Shown: one piece after another, positions 9,018 through 18,533 of the stretch
How positions within the stretch are numbered: position 1 is the stretch's first letter
Layout: every line of letters starts with the position of its first letter
Made by a program: the position numbers and the translations under genes
Notes under the pieces: generated by a model
The model's database searches: none
What the model was told of the DNA's origin: nothing
Seen by the model: the letters and a program-made list of their open reading frames with translations, nothing else
NCBI GenBank assembly: GCA_040755755.1
Contig: JBFLZW010000073.1
Location: forward strand, 1-20,704
Source of the DNA: a bacterium
GTDB lineage: Bacteria; SZUA-182; DTGQ01
Reading direction: 5' to 3'
Length of the DNA stretch: 20,704 nt

Positions 9018-12000
9018 ATGAAAAGAATCAGTATAGGGATTATGGTTATCTTGTTGTCTCTGGGATTATGGGGAACAGCCCTCGCTGCCACTTCAGCCCT
9101 GGAAAGGCCGCTAGGGTATTTAGGCAAACCCGCTGACTATAATCAGACTATCAAACGCTTTGATTATCCACCATCTAAACTCAGATTTCCCTCATACTTC
9201 AACTGGGCAGATCTGGGAATGGTGACTCCGGCCAAGGACCAGGGCTACTGTGGGAGCTGCTGGGCTTTTTGTGTTGTGGGAGTTCTCGAGTCAAAGATAC
9301 TCATAGCCGGAGGATCTTCCTATGATATCTCCGAGGAGCAGCAGGTAGCGTGCGATACTGATAATTTTGGATGCTGCGGCGGCTATTTGGATACCTTACG
9401 ATTCTGGGAAACCCATAGCCCTATGCAAGAAAGTTGTACCGGCTATCCTGACTACACCACCTCATGTCCAACCTATACTACCGTATCCTGCAGTAATCTG
9501 GAAAGTAGCTGCAGTACTCTGCCCTATCACACAACGGGATTCTATACGGTAGATGCCTCCAGTATCGATCAAATCAAGTCTACCGTCACTATCGATGGAC
9601 CTGCCTGTCTGGGATTTCGTGTGCATTATGATTTCTTCACTTATTGGGCTTATGCTTCCCCGGGAGCGGTCTATACGAACACCGTGAATGACTTGAGAGG
9701 TGGCCACATGGTCCCGATCATTGGCTGGGACGATGAAAAAGGTGCCTGGCTCTGCAAGAATAGCTGGGGCGCAACAGACGGGCCAAATGGTGACGGGACG
9801 TTCTGGATTGCATATACAGGCCATGCCAATGATCTGGATTTTGGTGTAGCTAATTCACAGTTGACCACTATAGTACCAGCTCAATGTGACCATACCGAAG
9901 AGATCATTGCGCATACCTTCCTTGGAACCGGAACCGGCCAGGACTGGAATAGCGATGATAACAGCTGGCCTTATACCCTGCCCTTTACTTTCCCCTTCTT
10001 TGGCCAGACCTATACATCGGTAAATGTTTCCTCGAATGGATTCGTTGATTTTGTCACCCCCAGTGGGGATTTTACTCCTTCTGAAGCAGAGCTGATTAAC
10101 AACGTCCGGATCGCCCCGCTTTGGGCTGACCTGGACACACGGCCTGGCGATATCTATATTCATCAGCCTACACCCGATTCTGTCTGCATCCGATGGGAAG
10201 GTTGTGAATGGGGTTACAGCAGCTCCTCCATAAACGTCGAGCTGATCCTGTATCAGGACGGTCGCATTCAGTTCAACTATGGGAGTGGAAATTCAATGTA
10301 CAGGACTCCCCTTATCGGCATATCGGGCGGAGATGGGGTCCATTATTGTCTCTCGACCTATAATGGCAACACCGTCCTCACCGATGCCGATTCCGTTCTG
10401 TACACGCCGGGCACCCCACCCCCACCAGAAGAAGCTGAATGGACCTTCATGGTTTACCTCGATGGAGACAATAATTTAGAGCAATTCGGGATAGCCGACT
10501 TTTTGGAAATGGCGAGTGTCGGGAGCAGCTCGGCAATCAATATCCTTGTCCAGTTTGACCGGATAGGGGAATATGATTCCAGTTATGATGACTGGACTAC
10601 CTGCAAACGATACCGGCTGACACCAGGCATGACACCAACCGCTGCCAATGCTCTCCAGGACCTCGGAGAAGTCGATATGGGAGATTTAGGGACTCTGAGA
10701 GATTTCATTGATTGGGGTATAGCTAATTATCCTGCCAGCCAGTATGCTCTGATTCTCTGGAATCATGGAGGCGGATGGCGTGAAAGAGAATTGGCCCTTA
10801 AGGCTTCCCTCAAAGCGGCGAGAACAGAACGTGAGCGGGCTAAGATAAAGAAGATGCTCCTGAAGCTTGAGGAAGAGAAGAAGGCTCATCCTGCGTATAA
10901 GGCAGTGTGCTGGGACGATACCGACGGGGGCGTCTTGTATACCCAGGAACTCCGTGAAGCTCTCGATGCAGCCAGTGGCGATATGAACCTGCTCGGTTTC
11001 GATGCCTGTCTGATGTCGATGATCGAGGTCGCCTACGAGGTAAAGGATACCGGAGTAAGTGTCATGGTCGGCTCCGAGGAAACCGAGCCGGGAACTGGCT
11101 GGCCTTATGACACCATCCTTTCTGATCTGGCTGGTAATCCTGCCTGGGATGCATCGGCTCTTGGCATTTCCATCGTTGACCGTTATTATGAGTCCTATGG
11201 TAATGATATGACGATGGCAGCAATCGATATAGCTCACCTCGATAGCCTGGCTGGCCTTGTCAGCTCATTAGCGGATACCATGATGGCTTCCTGGGCTACT
11301 GACCAGCAGGCAGTGAAAGACGCCGCTCAACTGGTAAAGGACGAGATCGATCAGACGGTGATTGACGAACATCATGGCTCATCCTGGCCAGGTGCTCATG
11401 GTCTGGCCATTTACTTCCCGCAATACGAGGGTGATTTTGATCCTGACTATAATGGCTCAAATATCAATTTTGCCGCAGACACCTTGTGGGAAGAATTTCT
11501 GGCTGATTTTTATGCCTCAATGTCAGGGTCATGGATTGCCTTAGCCCGGTCGGGCGCCCAAGAGTTTTACTATCCTCAACACATTGATCTGTACGACTTC
11601 TGTGAAAACCTGGTGTCATGGACGGAACCTGAATGCGGCCATACCGAAGCTATCCTGCCGCACACCTTCCTTGGCAATGGAACCGGCCAGGGCTGGAATG
11701 CTGATGATATGAGTTGGTCTTATACTTTGCCCTTTGCTTTCCCCTTCTATGGCGTGAGCTATACTACGGTCAATGTCTGCTCGAATGGATTCCTCGATTT
11801 TGCAAGCTCCTCTGCTGATTATACTAATTCCACAGAAGAGCTGATCAGCAACGTGCGAATCGCCCCGCTGTGGACAGACATAGTAACAACTGGCGATATT
11901 TATATTCACCAGCCGTCAGCCGATTCGGTCTGCATTCGCTGGGAAGGCGTGGAATATACAGACGGTGGCTCTATCAATGTTGAAGTGATCCTGTATGCTG

Positions 12001-13205
12001 ATGGCCGGATTAAGTTCAATTACGGAAGTGGAAACACGAGCATAGCCGGCTGGACTGGTTCACCTACTATCGGGATATCCGCCGGGGATGGAAGCCATTA
12101 TTGTCTCTCAATCCATAACGGCAACACAGAGCTCACCGATGCTGACTCCATTCTCTACACACCGGGAATTCCTCCGTCGCCGGTTGCAACCGATATCTTC
12201 TGGTACAAATCCGGTCATGCGCCTGACAGTTTGTGGGTGGCCAATGGTGATGGGACGTTTACCAATGTCGCGCAGCAAATCTATTTGACCTATAATCCGC
12301 CGTTCACGGGTGACTTTAACGGCGATGGTCTCACGGATATTTTCTGGTATCGGCCTGGTAATGACAGTGATTATATCTATTTTGCCAATGGTGACGGGAC
12401 ATTCTCTCCTCCTCCCGTCGAGGATCTCTTTATCGATGGAACCTACCAACCGCTCACGGGAGATTTTAACAGTGACGGCAAAACGGATATCTTCTGGTAT
12501 TGTCCCGGCGAAGGTGCCGATTTTGTATTTTTATCCAATGGCGATGGGACATTTGCCACGATTCCACTCTTTGTCGATGGCGACTATCAGCCACTGGCGG
12601 GTGATTATGATGGTGACGGCGATACCGACGTCTTCTTCTTCAAGCCTGGCACCGGAAGCGACTGGCTATTCTCGTCCAATGGCGATGGAACGTTTACCAG
12701 GATCTGGCAGGATATGGATGAATTTAACTGCAGAACCGCCGTCGGAGATTATAATGGCGACGGAAAAGCCGATATCTTCTTCTACGGGCTTGGCAGTGTA
12801 GCTGACTGGCTGTGGACATCCAATGGGGATGCCACCTTTACCGTGACTTCTCCTGTATCCATTGGCGAAAATTATCGTCCTCTCGCCGGAGATTTTAACG
12901 GCGATGGCAAGGCCGATATCTTCCTGTATCAACAAGATGGTACCGTGGCCGCTATACTGCTGATGTCCAATGGCGATGGAACCTTCACTGCCCACTCGCA
13001 AACGGTGGGTGGCAACTATCAGCGGATCCTGGGAGATTTCAATGCTGACGGCATGGCCGATATCTTCTGGTATCAGGCTGGTACCGGAGCCGATGAGCTG
13101 TGGCTGTCCAATGGGGATGGAACCTTCACCAGCAGCCCGCAGACGGTAGACGGCAATTATCGGCCACTGACGGGAGAGTTTGCCAACAGTTTACCTCCAA
13201 TGTAA
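9018..13205 (+). CDS. secreted multidomain double cysteine protease (papain C1A + clostripain C11) with FG-GAP propeller
   Basis: A 1395-residue exported protein. Residues 1-23 are a Sec signal peptide (cleavage near ALA-AT). Residues about 50-285 are a papain-like C1A domain: oxyanion Q75, catalytic C81 in CGSCWAF, H230 in GGHMVPIIGWD and N248 in KNSWG; the propeptide is very short. Residues 290-465 and 873-1050 are two copies of a beta-sandwich, nidogen-like domain (FPFFGQTY...SNGF...IAPLWADLD; 39 of the first 54 positions identical). Between them, 475-865 is a clostripain-like C11 domain with H583 in NHGGGW and C664 in FDACLM. Residues 1057-1390 hold seven FG-GAP repeats with DxNxDG calcium loops, probably a seven-bladed propeller for adhesion or substrate binding. 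The ATG follows AAGGAG by six bases, and a strong terminator follows. It probably digests external protein; no dedicated secretion-sorting tag is seen. Confidence 0.92.
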   Translation: MKRISIGIMVILLSLGLWGTALAATSALERPLGYLGKPADYNQTIKRFDYPPSKLRFPSYFNWADLGMVTPAKDQGYCGSCWAFCVVGVLESKILIAGGSSYDISEEQQVACDTDNFGCCGGYLDTLRFWETHSPMQESCTGYPDYTTSCPTYTTVSCSNLESSCSTLPYHTTGFYTVDASSIDQIKSTVTIDGPACLGFRVHYDFFTYWAYASPGAVYTNTVNDLRGGHMVPIIGWDDEKGAWLCKNSWGATDGPNGDGTFWIAYTGHANDLDFGVANSQLTTIVPAQCDHTEEIIAHTFLGTGTGQDWNSDDNSWPYTLPFTFPFFGQTYTSVNVSSNGFVDFVTPSGDFTPSEAELINNVRIAPLWADLDTRPGDIYIHQPTPDSVCIRWEGCEWGYSSSSINVELILYQDGRIQFNYGSGNSMYRTPLIGISGGDGVHYCLSTYNGNTVLTDADSVLYTPGTPPPPEEAEWTFMVYLDGDNNLEQFGIADFLEMASVGSSSAINILVQFDRIGEYDSSYDDWTTCKRYRLTPGMTPTAANALQDLGEVDMGDLGTLRDFIDWGIANYPASQYALILWNHGGGWRERELALKASLKAARTERERAKIKKMLLKLEEEKKAHPAYKAVCWDDTDGGVLYTQELREALDAASGDMNLLGFDACLMSMIEVAYEVKDTGVSVMVGSEETEPGTGWPYDTILSDLAGNPAWDASALGISIVDRYYESYGNDMTMAAIDIAHLDSLAGLVSSLADTMMASWATDQQAVKDAAQLVKDEIDQTVIDEHHGSSWPGAHGLAIYFPQYEGDFDPDYNGSNINFAADTLWEEFLADFYASMSGSWIALARSGAQEFYYPQHIDLYDFCENLVSWTEPECGHTEAILPHTFLGNGTGQGWNADDMSWSYTLPFAFPFYGVSYTTVNVCSNGFLDFASSSADYTNSTEELISNVRIAPLWTDIVTTGDIYIHQPSADSVCIRWEGVEYTDGGSINVEVILYADGRIKFNYGSGNTSIAGWTGSPTIGISAGDGSHYCLSIHNGNTELTDADSILYTPGIPPSPVATDIFWYKSGHAPDSLWVANGDGTFTNVAQQIYLTYNPPFTGDFNGDGLTDIFWYRPGNDSDYIYFANGDGTFSPPPVEDLFIDGTYQPLTGDFNSDGKTDIFWYCPGEGADFVFLSNGDGTFATIPLFVDGDYQPLAGDYDGDGDTDVFFFKPGTGSDWLFSSNGDGTFTRIWQDMDEFNCRTAVGDYNGDGKADIFFYGLGSVADWLWTSNGDATFTVTSPVSIGENYRPLAGDFNGDGKADIFLYQQDGTVAAILLMSNGDGTFTAHSQTVGGNYQRILGDFNADGMADIFWYQAGTGADELWLSNGDGTFTSSPQTVDGNYRPLTGEFANSLPPM

Positions 13206-13496: not shown

Positions 13497-14381
13497 ATGT
13501 TGAACAAAAAGATTGTTATTCCTGCTCTCCTCCTGGCTGTTTTAACAATTTCCTCGGTTAGTCTGGCTGATGATACAATCAATGCTGACAATCCGGCCAG
13601 CCGGTATTTTCAGAACGGAATTTCCCTGTTCGATCAGGGAGATTACGACCAGGCACTGCCAGCTTTTCAGAAAGCAACACAGGAAGATCCAAACTACGCC
13701 GAAGGCTATTATAACCAGGGAATTATCTATGACCTCCAGGGCAGGTTCACTGAAGCTATCGAGGCATATCAAAAAGTTATCCGGCTTGACCCTGAAGTCG
13801 GCACCGTGCTCAGGAATCTGGCGCAGGATTGTTACGTGACGGGAAGATTACGGGAAGCCATGGATTACATCAAACTGGCCGAATCCCTGGGCCAGCCTGT
13901 TGATAAGGAGTTCTATAACCAGATATGGGCCGAGTATAAGGGCCTCAAGTCCAGGCAGACAGGCGGCAAGACTGCTCCAGCGAGCGGGAAGGGGCGGATT
14001 GAAGGCCGGACCGCAGGCATCTCCCATGCGGAGTCCCCGGAGGACAGGGAACTGGAAAAGGTCCAGCGGGATATTGAACTCGACATTATCAGTCTGGAAA
14101 AGGAGCTCGGTCAACAGGAGACAGGAAAATCGGGGGAGCTTATCAACCTGGGAATCAAGTACCGTCAGAAGGGGGAGATTGACAAATCCATCGACGTTCT
14201 GACCAGGGCTCTTTCCCTCAGCACCGCCAAGATGATGATTTATGCCGAGCTTGGGCTGTGCTACTATTTTAAGGACCGCAAAGACCTTTTCGTGCAGAAT
14301 TTCGGGCAGGCTAAAAGAAGCGGCTTCAAGCCTTCCCGATCTTTGAACGATCTTTATCTGCAATGTCTGGCCCGGAAGTAG
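13497..14381 (+). CDS. exported tetratricopeptide repeat (TPR) protein
   Basis: TPR proteins are protein-protein interaction scaffolds. This 294-residue protein has an N-terminal Sec signal (hydrophobic residues 6-20, likely cleavage after SLA-24), so it should be periplasmic or surface-exposed. At least three TPR units run from about 34 to 135 (YFQNGISLFDQGDYDQALPAF, then AEGYYNQGIIYDLQGRFTEA, then LRNLAQDCYVTGRLREAM). A charged linker with predicted helix follows (about 150-205), then one or two more TPR-like units (210-285). AGGA precedes the ATG by eight bases. It has its own consensus promoter after the protease terminator, so it is a separate unit. Its last 56 bases overlap the tail of the convergent HAD gene. 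The specific partner is unknown. Confidence 0.85.
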   Translation: MLNKKIVIPALLLAVLTISSVSLADDTINADNPASRYFQNGISLFDQGDYDQALPAFQKATQEDPNYAEGYYNQGIIYDLQGRFTEAIEAYQKVIRLDPEVGTVLRNLAQDCYVTGRLREAMDYIKLAESLGQPVDKEFYNQIWAEYKGLKSRQTGGKTAPASGKGRIEGRTAGISHAESPEDRELEKVQRDIELDIISLEKELGQQETGKSGELINLGIKYRQKGEIDKSIDVLTRALSLSTAKMMIYAELGLCYYFKDRKDLFVQNFGQAKRSGFKPSRSLNDLYLQCLARK

Positions 14382-15048
14382 TTTTTTCATCTTTCGCTGC
14401 CTGGCCGAAAAGTAATTCTCGTACTTCCTGCACGGAATCAAGAATCACATCCGCCTGCTGAAGATACTCGCGGGGCAGGGAAGTGGTTACGGCTATGCAG
14501 AGCAGTCCTGCTCCCTTGGCCGCCTGAATGCCATAGGGAGCGTTTTCGATAACCAGCGCCTCATGGGGCCTGATATTCAGCTTCTCAAGCGCTGCAAGAT
14601 AGGGGTCAGGGGCTGGTTTTCCCCGTCTGACCCTGTCGCCAGTGATGATAACCTCAAAAAGGCTGCTCAACCGGGCAGGGAGGATGGAATCCACCTCATT
14701 TTGAGATGTCCCGGTAACCAGGGCCAGCCGGTATCCCCGCTTTTTGATCTCCTGAATTAAATCCTCAACCCCGGAAAACAGGCTTGGAGAGGCGATCTTT
14801 TTAAACAGGCTCTCCTTTTGCTGTACAAGATGCTGCTTTTCCTCCAGAGGCAATTGTTTCCCGTACTTGGCCAGCAGCTCTGACAGGGTTACCATGCCCG
14901 GCTCTCCCTCCCGCGCATAGATCTCGAGTTTATCGACCTGAATGCCGATTGACCGAAGGATCTCCTGCCAGGCTCGGAAGTGGTCTGGCATGGTATGGAC
15001 AATAACCCCGTCCATATCAAATAGCACGGCTCTGCGCTCTTGAAGCAC
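14326..15048 (-). CDS. HAD superfamily phosphatase, beta-phosphoglucomutase-like
   Basis: Predicted cytosolic phosphatase or phosphomutase of HAD subfamily IA. With the start used here (240 residues) the nucleophile motif is LFDMDGVIVH (D11, D13), followed by MPDHFRAW. Motif II is LVTGTS, motif III lysine is in RRGKPAPDPYL, and motif IV-like VIENAPYGIQAAKGAG matches beta-phosphoglucomutase and related sugar-phosphate phosphatases. The substrate cannot be assigned. I chose the GTG at 15048 instead of an in-frame GTG at 15114. It is preceded by AGGAG with a five-base spacer, gives the usual short N-terminus, and sits 8 bases after the ATPase stop rather than overlapping it. The gene is therefore co-transcribed with the ATPase. 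The last 25 residues are non-conserved and overlap the convergent TPR gene. Confidence 0.88.
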   Translation of the reverse strand: MLQERRAVLFDMDGVIVHTMPDHFRAWQEILRSIGIQVDKLEIYAREGEPGMVTLSELLAKYGKQLPLEEKQHLVQQKESLFKKIASPSLFSGVEDLIQEIKKRGYRLALVTGTSQNEVDSILPARLSSLFEVIITGDRVRRGKPAPDPYLAALEKLNIRPHEALVIENAPYGIQAAKGAGLLCIAVTTSLPREYLQQADVILDSVQEVRELLFGQAAKDEKTTSGPDIADKDRSKIGKA

Positions 15049-15056
15049 CGCTTCTC

Positions 15057-18000
15057 CTATATCATTGTGGTGGGGCACAGGGGATTTCTCTTCTGTCGCC
15101 GCCGCACCAGCCACTTTCTTCCCTCTTCACAAAGCAGGATGACCGGGCCAAAGGTAAACAGAAGCGCCCAATCCTTCAGACCGATGGGAGCAAGACCGAA
15201 GATATTCTGGAAGAAGGGCGTATATACGAAAAGGAAAATTAAAGCGATTTCGCTGATGATACCGCCAAGGACCAGTTTATTACTGAAAAATCCCACCTTG
15301 AAAATTGATTCCCGGTCAGTCCGGCAGCAGAAGACATTGCCGATCTGGACAGTGACGATACCGGCCAGGCACATGGTCGTAGCCATAATGTAGACTGGTC
15401 CGTTCGGGTAGGCATAGGCCGGGTTATTCGTCGGCGGTACAAGCGTCCCCCAGCTTAGGCCGTGGGTCCAGTAAAGAAAGTAGTAGCCCACCATACACAG
15501 GGCAGCTTCGATCATGCCCAGGAACCCATAGGCTCTCAGGAACAGCTTGGTATTGATCATCCGCTCGTTTTGCAGCCGGGGAGGCCGGTTCATGGTTCCC
15601 GGCTCAGGGGCTTCCACACCAAGGCCAAGAGCAGGCACCAGGTCTGTGCCCAAATCCACTGCCAGGATCTGCATAACCGTCAGGGGCAGGGGAATCTTGA
15701 ACATGACAAAGAGGATAAAAGGAATAATCTCCGGCATGTTGCTGGCGAAGATATAGGTTACAAACCGTTTGATATTGGCATAGACAGCCCGGCCCTCTTC
15801 GATACCGGCAACGATGCTGGCAAAATTATCGTCGGTGATAATCATATTGGCCGCTTCCTTGGCCACATCATTGGCATGCATTCCTAGGGCAACGCCGATG
15901 TCTGCTTTTTTCAGGGCCGGAGCGTCGTTAACCCCGTCTCCGGTTACGGCCACGATATACCCTTCATCTTTCAGACAGGAGACAATCCGCATTTTCTGGT
16001 CAGGGGCCATACGGGCAAAGATTACCGGCCCCTTGAGAATAGTCTTCAATTTCTGATCATCCATGTCTGACAGCTCATGGCCGGTAATGACCGTGACGTT
16101 ATCCGGATCTTCAATCATGCCGATCTTGTGGGCAATGGATTTGGCGGTCAGGCCATAGTCTCCGGTGATCATGATGACCTTGATCCCGGCATTGCGGCAA
16201 TCGGCAATAGCTTTGGGTACTTCAACCCTTGGGGGATCGATCATGGCCGTCAGGGCCAGGAAGGTGAGGGATTTTTCCACGTTTTCATTGCTGTAATGGG
16301 TTAACGACGACAGTTCCTGGTCCTCGCGGCAGGCTACAGCCAGCACCCTGAGTCCTTCCCTGGCAAACAGGTCGTTCTGGCGGGTAATCGACTGACGCAT
16401 CTGCGGCGTCAGTTTTTCTTTTTTGCCATTGATGAGAATCGAATCACACTGGGCCAGAGTCTCAATGGGTGCTCCCTTGGTAAAGGCTAATTTTTTGCCA
16501 TCCGGAGTTTGATTGATGGTGGTCATTCGCTTTCGGATCGACTCAAAAGGAAGATGGCCGATCCGCAGGTAATCCACTGTCAGCGCTTCGGTATCCACCC
16601 CGGCTTTCTGTGCCAGAACGATAAGAGAGCCTTCAGTGGGGTCGCCCATGATCCTCCAGGAGGTTGTCTGCGAAGTGGGAGCGAGAAGGTGAGCATTATT
16701 GCACAGTACGGCTGAGGTAAAAAACAGACGGCAGGCAGGATCCTGCTGCAGGTCAGAGGGGGTGATCAGCCGCCCTTTCTCATCATGGAACTCCCCTTTG
16801 GGTTCATAGGAAGTGCCGCTGACATCGATCAGCTTCTGGTTGATAAAAATTTTGCAGACACTGATCTGGTTTGTGGTCAGGGTACCGGTTTTATCCGTGC
16901 AGATAACATTGGTGCAGCCCAGGGTTTCCACCGAGGAAAGCTGCTTGATCAGAACGTTTCGCTTGGCCATCCGCTGAACACCCATGGCCAGAGCCAGTGA
17001 AACCGTGGGCAGGAGCCCCTCCGGAATATTGGCGACGATGATACCAATGGTGAAGATGAAAGAACCGATCAGAGAGAGCCCGCCCAGGCTCTTTCCCAGG
17101 AAGAAAAAGATGATCCCCATGCCAACGGCCAGGATAGAAATGATATTGACCATTTTTTCCATTTCTTTCTGGAGCGGGCTCAGCTCTTTCTTGACCGACT
17201 GGGTCAGCCGGGCAATTTTGCCGATTTCCGTATTCATACCGGTACCGATCACGACTCCCCGGCCACTGCCCGATGTTACCGAAGTTCCGGCGAAAATCAC
17301 ATTTGGCAGCTCGGTCCACAAAAGAATCGCTCCATCTTCAATGGGCTCGGACATTTTGTAGATGGGCCGGGACTCTCCGGTCAGGGCTGCATTATTGACC
17401 CGCATTTCGTGAGATTCTATCAGCCGGGCATCCACCGGGATGCTGTCTCCCTCCTCAAGGAAAATAATATCACCGGGCACCAGCTCTGAAGAGAGAACCT
17501 CGGTTTTCTGGCCGTTGCGAAGAATGCTGGATTTTTGAGGCAGCAGCTTTTGCAAAGCCTCAATGGCCTTTTCCGCTTTGAATTCCTGCCAGAAAGAGAA
17601 TACGGCGTTAATCAGGATCACCGCAAAGATAGCCCAGCCCAGTTGCGGCATATCCACACCGGGAATAAAGCACAAGAACCCGCCAACCCAGAGGAGGATG
17701 GCAAAGAGAGAAATAAAGTTTTTCAGGAGCTTGACGTAGACAGGAGTCTGCTTGATCTTCTTCAGGATATTGGGACCATAAACCTCCAGCCGCCTTTTTG
17801 CCTCTTCCTGGCTCAGCCCATTCTCCGAGGTCTGGAGCTCTGCAAAAATACTTTTCCTGTCGAGGTTGATGAATCCGTATTTTCCCTTGTCCTCTTCATC
17901 CACCAGAATTTTGTAGACTTTTTCCGGAGAGTCCGCCTGTTCCACACGTGCCCGGAGCTTTTCATTTCCCAGGATGCTCGATATTTTGGCCAGGATCTGC

Positions 18001-18347
18001 AAATGGGTAGAGGTCTGGTCGCTGGGAGTGATAAAAAGGAAGAATATCTTGCAGGGCTTCCCATCAATGGCGTTAAAATCAAGACCCTCTTTGATAACAG
18101 CCAGTCTGACTACCGGCTCCTTAAGACCGTCGAGCCTGATATGGGGAATGGCAACACCATTGCCAACTCCGGTCGAGGAAATCTCTTCCCTCTCCAGGAG
18201 TTGCTGGATTATCTGCCGCTGCGCAATTGTTCCATTGCCATTCAAAGCAAGTGATGGCGGAACGATCCGGGATAAAAGATCTTCCCGATCCTTGACTTTG
18301 GACAAACAGGAAATTTTTTCTGAATCAAGCAGTTCGTAAATTTTCAT
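15057..18347 (-). CDS. PTS EIIA-Ntr-like domain fused to a Na+,K+-ATPase-type (P2C) P-type ATPase
   Basis: A 1096-residue membrane protein. Residues 1-150 are a PTS EIIA (PtsN-type) domain with the phosphorylatable histidine (H69 in GVAIPHIRL). Residues about 160 to the end are a complete P-type ATPase: cation-ATPase N-terminal domain, NNAALTGES actuator motif, PEGLL in M4 (E443), phosphorylated D485 in DKTGTLTTN, the TGD...TGDGVNDAPAL hinge, and about ten membrane segments. M5 SNMPEIIPF (N870, E873) and M6 DLGTDLVPAL (D898, D902) match the cation-binding residues of Na+,K+-ATPase, so a monovalent cation pump is expected. No beta subunit is nearby. The start at 18347 fits the EIIA family (MKIYELLD); AAGGAGG lies 14 bases upstream, rather far. 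An in-frame ATG at 18371 overlaps that Shine-Dalgarno. The HAD gene follows in the same operon. Confidence 0.93.
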   Translation of the reverse strand: MKIYELLDSEKISCLSKVKDREDLLSRIVPPSLALNGNGTIAQRQIIQQLLEREEISSTGVGNGVAIPHIRLDGLKEPVVRLAVIKEGLDFNAIDGKPCKIFFLFITPSDQTSTHLQILAKISSILGNEKLRARVEQADSPEKVYKILVDEEDKGKYGFINLDRKSIFAELQTSENGLSQEEAKRRLEVYGPNILKKIKQTPVYVKLLKNFISLFAILLWVGGFLCFIPGVDMPQLGWAIFAVILINAVFSFWQEFKAEKAIEALQKLLPQKSSILRNGQKTEVLSSELVPGDIIFLEEGDSIPVDARLIESHEMRVNNAALTGESRPIYKMSEPIEDGAILLWTELPNVIFAGTSVTSGSGRGVVIGTGMNTEIGKIARLTQSVKKELSPLQKEMEKMVNIISILAVGMGIIFFFLGKSLGGLSLIGSFIFTIGIIVANIPEGLLPTVSLALAMGVQRMAKRNVLIKQLSSVETLGCTNVICTDKTGTLTTNQISVCKIFINQKLIDVSGTSYEPKGEFHDEKGRLITPSDLQQDPACRLFFTSAVLCNNAHLLAPTSQTTSWRIMGDPTEGSLIVLAQKAGVDTEALTVDYLRIGHLPFESIRKRMTTINQTPDGKKLAFTKGAPIETLAQCDSILINGKKEKLTPQMRQSITRQNDLFAREGLRVLAVACREDQELSSLTHYSNENVEKSLTFLALTAMIDPPRVEVPKAIADCRNAGIKVIMITGDYGLTAKSIAHKIGMIEDPDNVTVITGHELSDMDDQKLKTILKGPVIFARMAPDQKMRIVSCLKDEGYIVAVTGDGVNDAPALKKADIGVALGMHANDVAKEAANMIITDDNFASIVAGIEEGRAVYANIKRFVTYIFASNMPEIIPFILFVMFKIPLPLTVMQILAVDLGTDLVPALGLGVEAPEPGTMNRPPRLQNERMINTKLFLRAYGFLGMIEAALCMVGYYFLYWTHGLSWGTLVPPTNNPAYAYPNGPVYIMATTMCLAGIVTVQIGNVFCCRTDRESIFKVGFFSNKLVLGGIISEIALIFLFVYTPFFQNIFGLAPIGLKDWALLFTFGPVILLCEEGRKWLVRRRQKRNPLCPTTMI

Positions 18348-18414: not shown

Positions 18415-18423
18415 ATTATAGCA
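18415..18423 (-). promoter_or_regulatory. extended -10 promoter for the EIIA-ATPase operon
   Basis: On the minus strand TGCTATAAT is a perfect extended -10 element; the -35 region is poor. The predicted start is near 18408, about 60 bases before the ATG at 18347. Confidence 0.5.
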
Positions 18424-18500
18424 CAAATCGTCAATATGGGAAACAATACTTTCTTATTTCATCGCCTATTGAGGGTAATTTCTTCCCCCCTCCTGAGCTG

Positions 18501-18533
18501 TCAATAAAAAAACCTCCCATATTGGTGGGAGGT
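18501..18533 (-). terminator. minus-strand rho-independent terminator upstream of the ATPase promoter
   Basis: On the minus strand ACCTCCCA-CCAATA-TGGGAGGT (8-bp stem, 6-base loop) is followed by seven T. It ends a transcript arriving from higher coordinates, where no annotated gene lies on this strand. It is upstream of the predicted ATPase promoter, so it is probably not an attenuator of that operon. Confidence 0.8.

What the first reader, a model, noticed from the sequence alone, without database searches (positions are those of the whole stretch)
15057..18347. PTS EIIA-Ntr-like domain covalently fused to a Na+,K+-ATPase-type pump
Seen: a single uninterrupted frame encodes a complete EIIA domain with its phosphorylatable His (H69) followed by a complete P2C ATPase with all catalytic motifs. 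Known: in E. coli, PtsN phosphorylation state controls K+ homeostasis through TrkA and KdpD. Inference: this protein would put a cation pump directly under PTS-Ntr phosphorylation control by fusion rather than by a separate regulator. I know of no characterised example.
Basis: partly seen in the sequence, partly recalled or inferred. Interest (0 to 1): 0.85.

Follow-up and report, generated by a model that had tools for sequence, protein, structure and literature searches.

The report
Cation pump with built-in PTS switch
One bacterial gene joins a complete ion pump of the sodium-potassium-ATPase type to a domain that, in other proteins, carries phosphate in the sugar/nitrogen phosphotransferase relay; the same fusion occurs in three bacterial phyla with the phosphate-accepting histidine always kept, so these pumps are probably switched directly by the cell's energy relay, a kind of control I found no description of for any P-type pump.

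Summary
The minus-strand ORF 15057-18347 (1096 aa) is a PTS_EIIA_2 domain (residues 6-148, H69) followed, after a short linker, by a complete type II P-type ATPase with all catalytic motifs. It is not an assembly artefact: the fusion recurs in the same genus, in 10 Spirochaetota genomes (two in 4.3-4.4 Mb contigs) and in a Fusobacteriaceae MAG. In a Spirochaetota sample every pump of this subtype carries the domain; in one Actinomycetota class none was seen to, and the two such genomes tested lack Enzyme I. Across 14 fused proteins the EIIA domain has drifted to about 25% identity, yet H69 is one of only three invariant positions. The genome encodes EI, HPr (H15 and Ser46 site), HprK, PtsN and a mannose-type PTS; EI has no GAF domain, so "PTS-Ntr/PtsP" is too specific. 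Ion-site residues resemble Na+,K+-ATPase more than Ca2+ pumps, but the curated Na,K/H,K cut-off is not met; ion and direction of regulation are untested. Best reading: HPr~P phosphorylates H69 and gates the pump, a new variant of LacS-type EIIA-transporter fusion. No paper in the open library searched describes it.

The parts
15057..18347 (-). EIIA - P2C-like P-type ATPase fusion gene, 1096 aa
   Evidence: single open frame; Pfam and NCBIfam matches
17892..18347 (-). EIIA domain, residues 1-152; phospho-acceptor H69 codon at 18141-18143
   Evidence: PF00359 2e-29; fold match to PtsN 1a6j/3urr/2a0j; H69 invariant in 14 fused proteins
17856..17891 (-). linker (residues 153-164) with conserved N161-L162 just before the pump's N-terminal region
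   Evidence: conserved among fused proteins
15057..17855 (-). P-type ATPase, residues 165-1096: A, P, N and M domains; phosphorylated Asp D485
   Evidence: Pfam domains, motif positions, best PDB relatives Na,K-ATPase alpha
18415..18442 (-). possible extended -10 promoter (TG n TATAAT) just upstream of the gene
   Evidence: pattern match only; number of such matches in the region is within the shuffled expectation
14326..15114 (-). downstream HAD-family phosphatase (beta-PGM/diphosphatase-like) gene; its longest frame overlaps the fusion's 3' end; the same neighbour in the sister genome
   Evidence: Pfam HAD_2; L038 3728-4390

Best explanation
This is a membrane P-type cation pump (most likely Na+ out, possibly K+ in) carrying its own PTS-responsive regulatory domain. 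EI takes phosphate from PEP and passes it to HPr; HPr~P phosphorylates H69 of the N-terminal EIIA domain; the phosphorylation state changes how the EIIA domain contacts the pump's cytosolic domains and so sets the pump's turnover. By analogy with PtsN, I expect the unphosphorylated domain (low PEP, or HPr drained by sugar uptake or by HprK) to restrain the ATP-consuming pump and phosphorylation to release it. Shown: the fusion, its spread, the invariant His, the intact relay genes, the catalytic and ion-site residues. Inferred: phosphorylation by HPr, the effect on activity, its sign, and the ion.
For: Domain architecture. EI, HPr, HprK, PtsN present in this 97.6% complete genome. Fusion in the same genus (87%), Spirochaetota and Fusobacteriaceae, including 4.3-4.4 Mb contigs. 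In a 385-genome Spirochaetota sample the ATPase core alone retrieves 10 pumps: 9 in one open frame with EIIA, the tenth a disrupted copy that still has EIIA. H69, P108 and E152 are the only invariant EIIA-region positions in 14 proteins at 25% mean identity; two proteins even lose the preceding Pro but keep the His. The diverged spirochaete domains are EIIA by profile comparison (98.8%, E 1e-16; PDB profile hits all EIIA). EI was found in every fused genome and is absent from both tested genomes with the unfused pump. Ion-site residues N324, E327, S775, N776, E779, D804, T807, D808, Q923, E954 are kept, while the same genome's other pump (C34) has A/C/N at N324/S775/D804. Precedents: LacS (PMC10710835) and phospho-state-dependent PtsN-YcgO binding (PMC11808508).
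Against: No direct evidence of phosphorylation or regulation. EI is in 370 of 392 Spirochaetota genomes anyway, so co-occurrence there is uninformative, and the two EI-less unfused genomes are related. In 7 of 14 fused proteins the second active-site His (H115) is lost, and the active-site Arg (R53) survives only in this genus and the Fusobacteriaceae protein, so the diverged domains may accept phosphate poorly. The full-length model is too poor (pLDDT 56.5) to show where EIIA docks.
Confidence: 0.68

Rival explanations
1. The EIIA fold acts as a phosphorylation-independent regulatory or anchoring domain, as the EIIA-like cytoplasmic domain of the SLC4/band 3 anion exchangers does; H69 would serve another role such as metal or proton sensing.
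For: Foldseek also matches band 3/AE2/NDCBE cytoplasmic domains; auxiliary active-site residues are lost in most spirochaete members.
Against: H69 is invariant at 25% identity while most of the domain drifts; the window's own domain keeps R53, S58, T59, H69 and H115; its Pfam score is well above the gathering cut-off.
Confidence: 0.18
2. The domain is a working sugar-PTS EIIA that donates phosphate to a separate EIIB, with the pump merely its membrane anchor.
For: The domain scores at least as well against fructose-type IIA (TIGR00848, 89.7 bits) as against PtsN (TIGR01419, 79.2 bits), both below cut-off.
Against: No EIIC of the glucose/fructose type (PF02378) in the genome; the only permease found is mannose-type, which has its own EIIA. 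EIIB of the fructose/mannitol type was not searched for.
Confidence: 0.04
3. The domain mainly titrates HPr or feeds back on the relay, with the pump reporting ion state to PTS signalling, rather than the PTS controlling the pump.
For: The genome has five EIIA_2 proteins and one HPr.
Against: A titration role does not need covalent fusion to a pump; fusion of EIIA to other transporters suggests local control.
Confidence: 0.06
4. Assembly or frameshift artefact joining two genes.
For: None; the window comes from a draft genome.
Against: Independent genomes in three phyla, including 4.3-4.4 Mb contigs, carry the same order and linker.
Confidence: 0.01

Closest known systems
LacS lactose/galactose transporter of streptococci and lactobacilli (EIIA-Glc-like domain fused to a GPH carrier)
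   Same: A PTS EIIA domain fused to a non-PTS transporter; HPr phosphorylates the fused domain to modulate transport (PMC10710835).
   Different: LacS: EIIA of the Glc type on a secondary sugar carrier (C-terminal, from general knowledge). Here: N-terminal EIIA of the Ntr/Fru/Mtl type (PF00359) on a primary ATP-driven cation pump.
PtsN (EIIA-Ntr) acting in trans on K+ systems: TrkA, KdpD and the K+/H+ antiporter YcgO
   Same: The same EIIA family; phosphorylation state controls a monovalent-cation transporter (YcgO: PMC11808508; TrkA and KdpD: general knowledge).
   Different: Separate protein in trans and different transporter classes; here in cis on a P-type ATPase, and this genome has a separate ptsN as well.
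Na+,K+-ATPase / H+,K+-ATPase alpha subunits (P2C)
   Same: Nearest solved relatives (37.6% identity to pig alpha1 in my alignment); most ion-site residues kept.
   Different: Scores below the TIGR01106 cut-off; T772I, T774A, D926N; added EIIA domain; a beta subunit was not looked for.
Other EIIA_2-transporter fusions seen here: amino-acid permease + EIIA (this genome), CitMHS + EIIA (WOR-3), CPA2-like antiporter + EIIA (Neomarinimicrobiota, Spirochaetes)
   Same: An EIIA_2 domain fused to a transporter (the CPA2-like assignment is by eye).
   Different: All are secondary carriers; none is an ATP-driven pump.

Membership tests
PTS_EIIA_2 (PF00359) | profile score above the gathering cut-off | tested here: met
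   102.9 bits against 27. Diverged spirochaete domains are weaker: five of eight match at E <= 1 alone, but their profile matches EIIA at E 1e-16
PTS_EIIA_2 (PF00359) | phospho-acceptor His in the IPH motif | tested here: met
   H69; His in 14 of 14 fused proteins
PTS_EIIA_2 (PF00359) | EIIA-Ntr/Mtl fold | tested here: met
   pLDDT 92.9; TM 0.72-0.80 to PtsN structures
PtsN (NCBIfam TIGR01419) | equivalog score cut-off | tested here: not met
   79.2 bits against 138.7; a standalone PtsN-like gene lies on contig C31 in an rpoN-hpf-ptsN-hprK order
type II P-type ATPase | A, P, N and M domains with TGES, DKTGT, TGDGVNDAPA | tested here: met
Na,K/H,K-ATPase alpha, P2C (TIGR01106) | curated subfamily cut-off | tested here: not met
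   663.8 bits against 946.1, though it is the best-scoring ATPase model
Na,K/H,K-ATPase alpha, P2C (TIGR01106) | Na+/K+ site residues | tested here: inconclusive
   N324, E327, Y771, S775, N776, E779, D804, T807, D808, Q923, E954 kept; T772, T774, D926 changed
Na,K/H,K-ATPase alpha, P2C (TIGR01106) | Na+/K+ transport | not testable with these tools
   needs transport assays
Na,K/H,K-ATPase alpha, P2C (TIGR01106) | beta subunit | not tested
   no search for a beta-like subunit was made
LacS-type PTS-regulated transporter | HPr-dependent phosphorylation of the fused EIIA changes transport | not testable with these tools
   relay genes are present but no assay is possible

The most novel reading that the evidence does not exclude
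A family of primary ion pumps in at least three phyla is directly gated by histidine phosphorylation from the PEP relay, coupling cation gradients to glycolytic state in cis; in many Spirochaetota the domain has drifted to the edge of or beyond Pfam recognition but keeps the switch histidine, so such pumps are hidden in annotation.
Probability: 0.5. Interest if true: 0.82.

Novelty: new variant of a known kind. Interest (0 to 1): 0.64.

Why it matters
[quoted passage not shown] A fusion that puts the phospho-accepting domain on the pump itself would be a second and mechanistically different case, and would make the open question of how the PTS controls K+/Na+ homeostasis testable with three purified components (EI, HPr, pump).

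Tried and rejected
Assembly artefact: rejected. Full-length AlphaFold model to see docking: one failed job, then a poor model (pLDDT 56.5), not used; its Foldseek matches to Na,K-ATPase have TM below 0.2 and rmsd about 31 A and are not evidence of fold. Structured RNA or riboswitch upstream: nothing at gathering score; a weak Phe_leader match (E 0.067) lies over a terminator-like hairpin. Single origin of the fusion: fused proteins group together on the ATPase alone (FastTree 0.96) but with only 62.6/61 support when pig Na,K-ATPase is added, so loss in Actinomycetota or more than one gain cannot be excluded. Plasmid carriage: no plasmid record covers 80% of the EIIA plus pump N-terminus. Conserved gene neighbours: none obvious across phyla, only the HAD gene within the genus. 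Literature: searches for an EIIA-P-type ATPase fusion, EIIA-transporter fusions or bacterial Na,K-ATPase homologues gave no description of this fusion; the library is open-access only.

Full report
The feature. On the minus strand, 18347 down to 15057, one open frame encodes 1096 residues. Pfam places PTS_EIIA_2 at 6-148, Cation_ATPase_N at 165-225, E1-E2_ATPase at 267-463, Cation_ATPase at 547-637, Hydrolase at 680-816 and Cation_ATPase_C at 886-1080. H69 lies in VAIPH; R53, S58, T59 and H115 of the EIIA active site are also there; the pump has TGES 323-326, PEGL 442-445, D485KTGT, KGAP 624-627, DPPR 704-707 and TGDGVNDAPA 802-811. The EIIA domain alone models at pLDDT 92.9 and matches PtsN structures with TM 0.72-0.80.

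Is it real? The genus neighbour has the same protein at 87% identity, with dN/dS of about 0.12 over the EIIA part and 0.06 over the ATPase (synonymous sites are near saturation, so these are rough). The fusion also occurs in a Treponema MAG, another spirochaete MAG and a Fusobacteriaceae MAG and, in an even sample of about 390 Spirochaetota genomes, in eight further genomes in one frame, two of them in contigs of 4.3 and 4.4 Mb. Some of these proteins run into contig ends, and the Fusobacteriaceae contig has a run of N inside the gene.

How tightly does the domain go with the pump? Searching the Spirochaetota sample with the ATPase core only (E <= 1e-38) returned ten genomes, nine of them carrying the fusion in one frame; the tenth (G234) has a disrupted locus in which an EIIA stretch with IPH and HLQ lies directly before a shifted and shortened pump. 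By contrast, in the class of the Actinomycetota relatives 9 of 40 genomes have the pump, in frames of 929-953 aa that are too short to hold the domain; one further hit (G506) is a 423-aa fragment. The genomes with close fusions have EI, the two tested Actinomycetota genomes lack it. Because 370 of 392 Spirochaetota genomes have EI, that part of the correlation carries no weight; the Actinomycetota contrast rests on two related genomes.

Is the histidine under selection? In 14 fused proteins the EIIA domain averages 25% pairwise identity, against 54% for the first part of the ATPase. Only H69, P108 and E152 of 152 positions are invariant. P108 is also common in standalone EIIA domains. The second His is lost in 7 of 14 and the active-site Arg in most spirochaete members. 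Those diverged domains are still EIIA: a profile of eight of them aligns over 145 columns with standalone EIIA proteins at 98.8% probability, E 1e-16, with the histidines in register, and its only PDB matches are EIIA proteins. Two of three full-length diverged proteins scanned show no PTS_EIIA_2 match in Pfam at 0.001, so database architecture counts will miss them.

The phosphodonor. Contig C31 of this genome holds, on one strand, rpoN, a ribosome-hibernation-type gene, a ptsN-like gene, hprK, EIIA-Man, EIIB-Man, a 725-aa protein not identified here, EIIC and EIID of the mannose/sorbose family, HPr, EI and a pyrE-like gene (the hibernation and pyrE names are by eye). HPr has GLHARAA (H15) and GKSLLGILTL (Ser46 site); EI has the three PEP-utiliser domains and nothing else. 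The relay is therefore complete, but it is a general EI-HPr-HprK relay, not PtsP-NPr. No glucose/fructose-type EIIC was found.

The pump. The best PDB relatives are Na,K-ATPase alpha chains (576 bits), ahead of gastric H,K-ATPase (about 500), a Listeria Ca2+ pump (490) and SERCA (up to 469). The best NCBIfam ATPase model is the Na,K/H,K subfamily, below its cut-off. Aligned to pig alpha1, N324, E327, Y771, S775, N776, E779, D804, T807, D808, Q923 and E954 are identical; T772, T774 and D926 differ; the genome's other type II pump on C34 has A, C and N at N324, S775 and D804. Residue roles are from general knowledge. A monovalent-cation pump is the better guess, not a result.

Phylogeny. On the ATPase alone the fused proteins group together and apart from the Actinomycetota ones (0.96 in FastTree; 62.6/61 in IQ-TREE with the pig sequence). 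One origin followed by transfer between phyla is the simplest reading; the second tree does not force it.

Mechanism. LacS shows that a fused EIIA-like domain can be phosphorylated by HPr to modulate its transporter (PMC10710835), and PtsN binds the K+/H+ antiporter YcgO in its unphosphorylated form and inhibits it (PMC11808508). The most economical model is therefore HPr~P to H69, with the unphosphorylated domain restraining the pump. The sign is a guess (about even odds on top of the main claim). The main rival is a phosphorylation-independent EIIA-fold domain, as in band 3 relatives, which Foldseek also retrieves.

Known or new? I found no description of EIIA on a P-type ATPase in the open-access library. 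Sequence databases may already list the architecture; that could not be checked here.

Noticed in passing
L088 4317-6149 (-), own genome contig C6: An amino-acid permease with a C-terminal PTS_EIIA_2 domain (475-602): a second transporter-EIIA fusion in the same genome.
   Followed up: partly
L087 4029-4838 (+), own genome contig C79: EIIA_2 domain followed by a C-terminal C4-type zinc ribbon, an unusual combination.
   Followed up: no
L045 7875-9815 (WOR-3 MAG): N-terminal EIIA_2 fused to a CitMHS-type carrier; Pfam also scores Band_3_cyto weakly over the EIIA part.
   Followed up: partly
L122 about 9400-12300 (G234, Spirochaetota): The EIIA-pump locus is disrupted: the EIIA stretch is followed by a shifted, shortened ATPase, by decay or by assembly error.
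   Followed up: partly
window 18500-18530 (-): A terminator-like hairpin with a T-run (cctcccaccaatatgggaggttttttt) in the roughly 950-base non-coding stretch upstream of the gene, with no minus-strand gene seen before it; possibly the end of a small RNA or a leader.
   Followed up: partly
window 9018-13205 (+): 1395-aa protein combining papain-type (C1) and clostripain-type (C11) peptidase domains with FG-GAP repeats.
   Followed up: no
fused spirochaete pumps, e.g. L094 7879-11391: A large insertion (up to about 95 residues) between the M8 and M9 regions that is absent from the window's pump.
   Followed up: no
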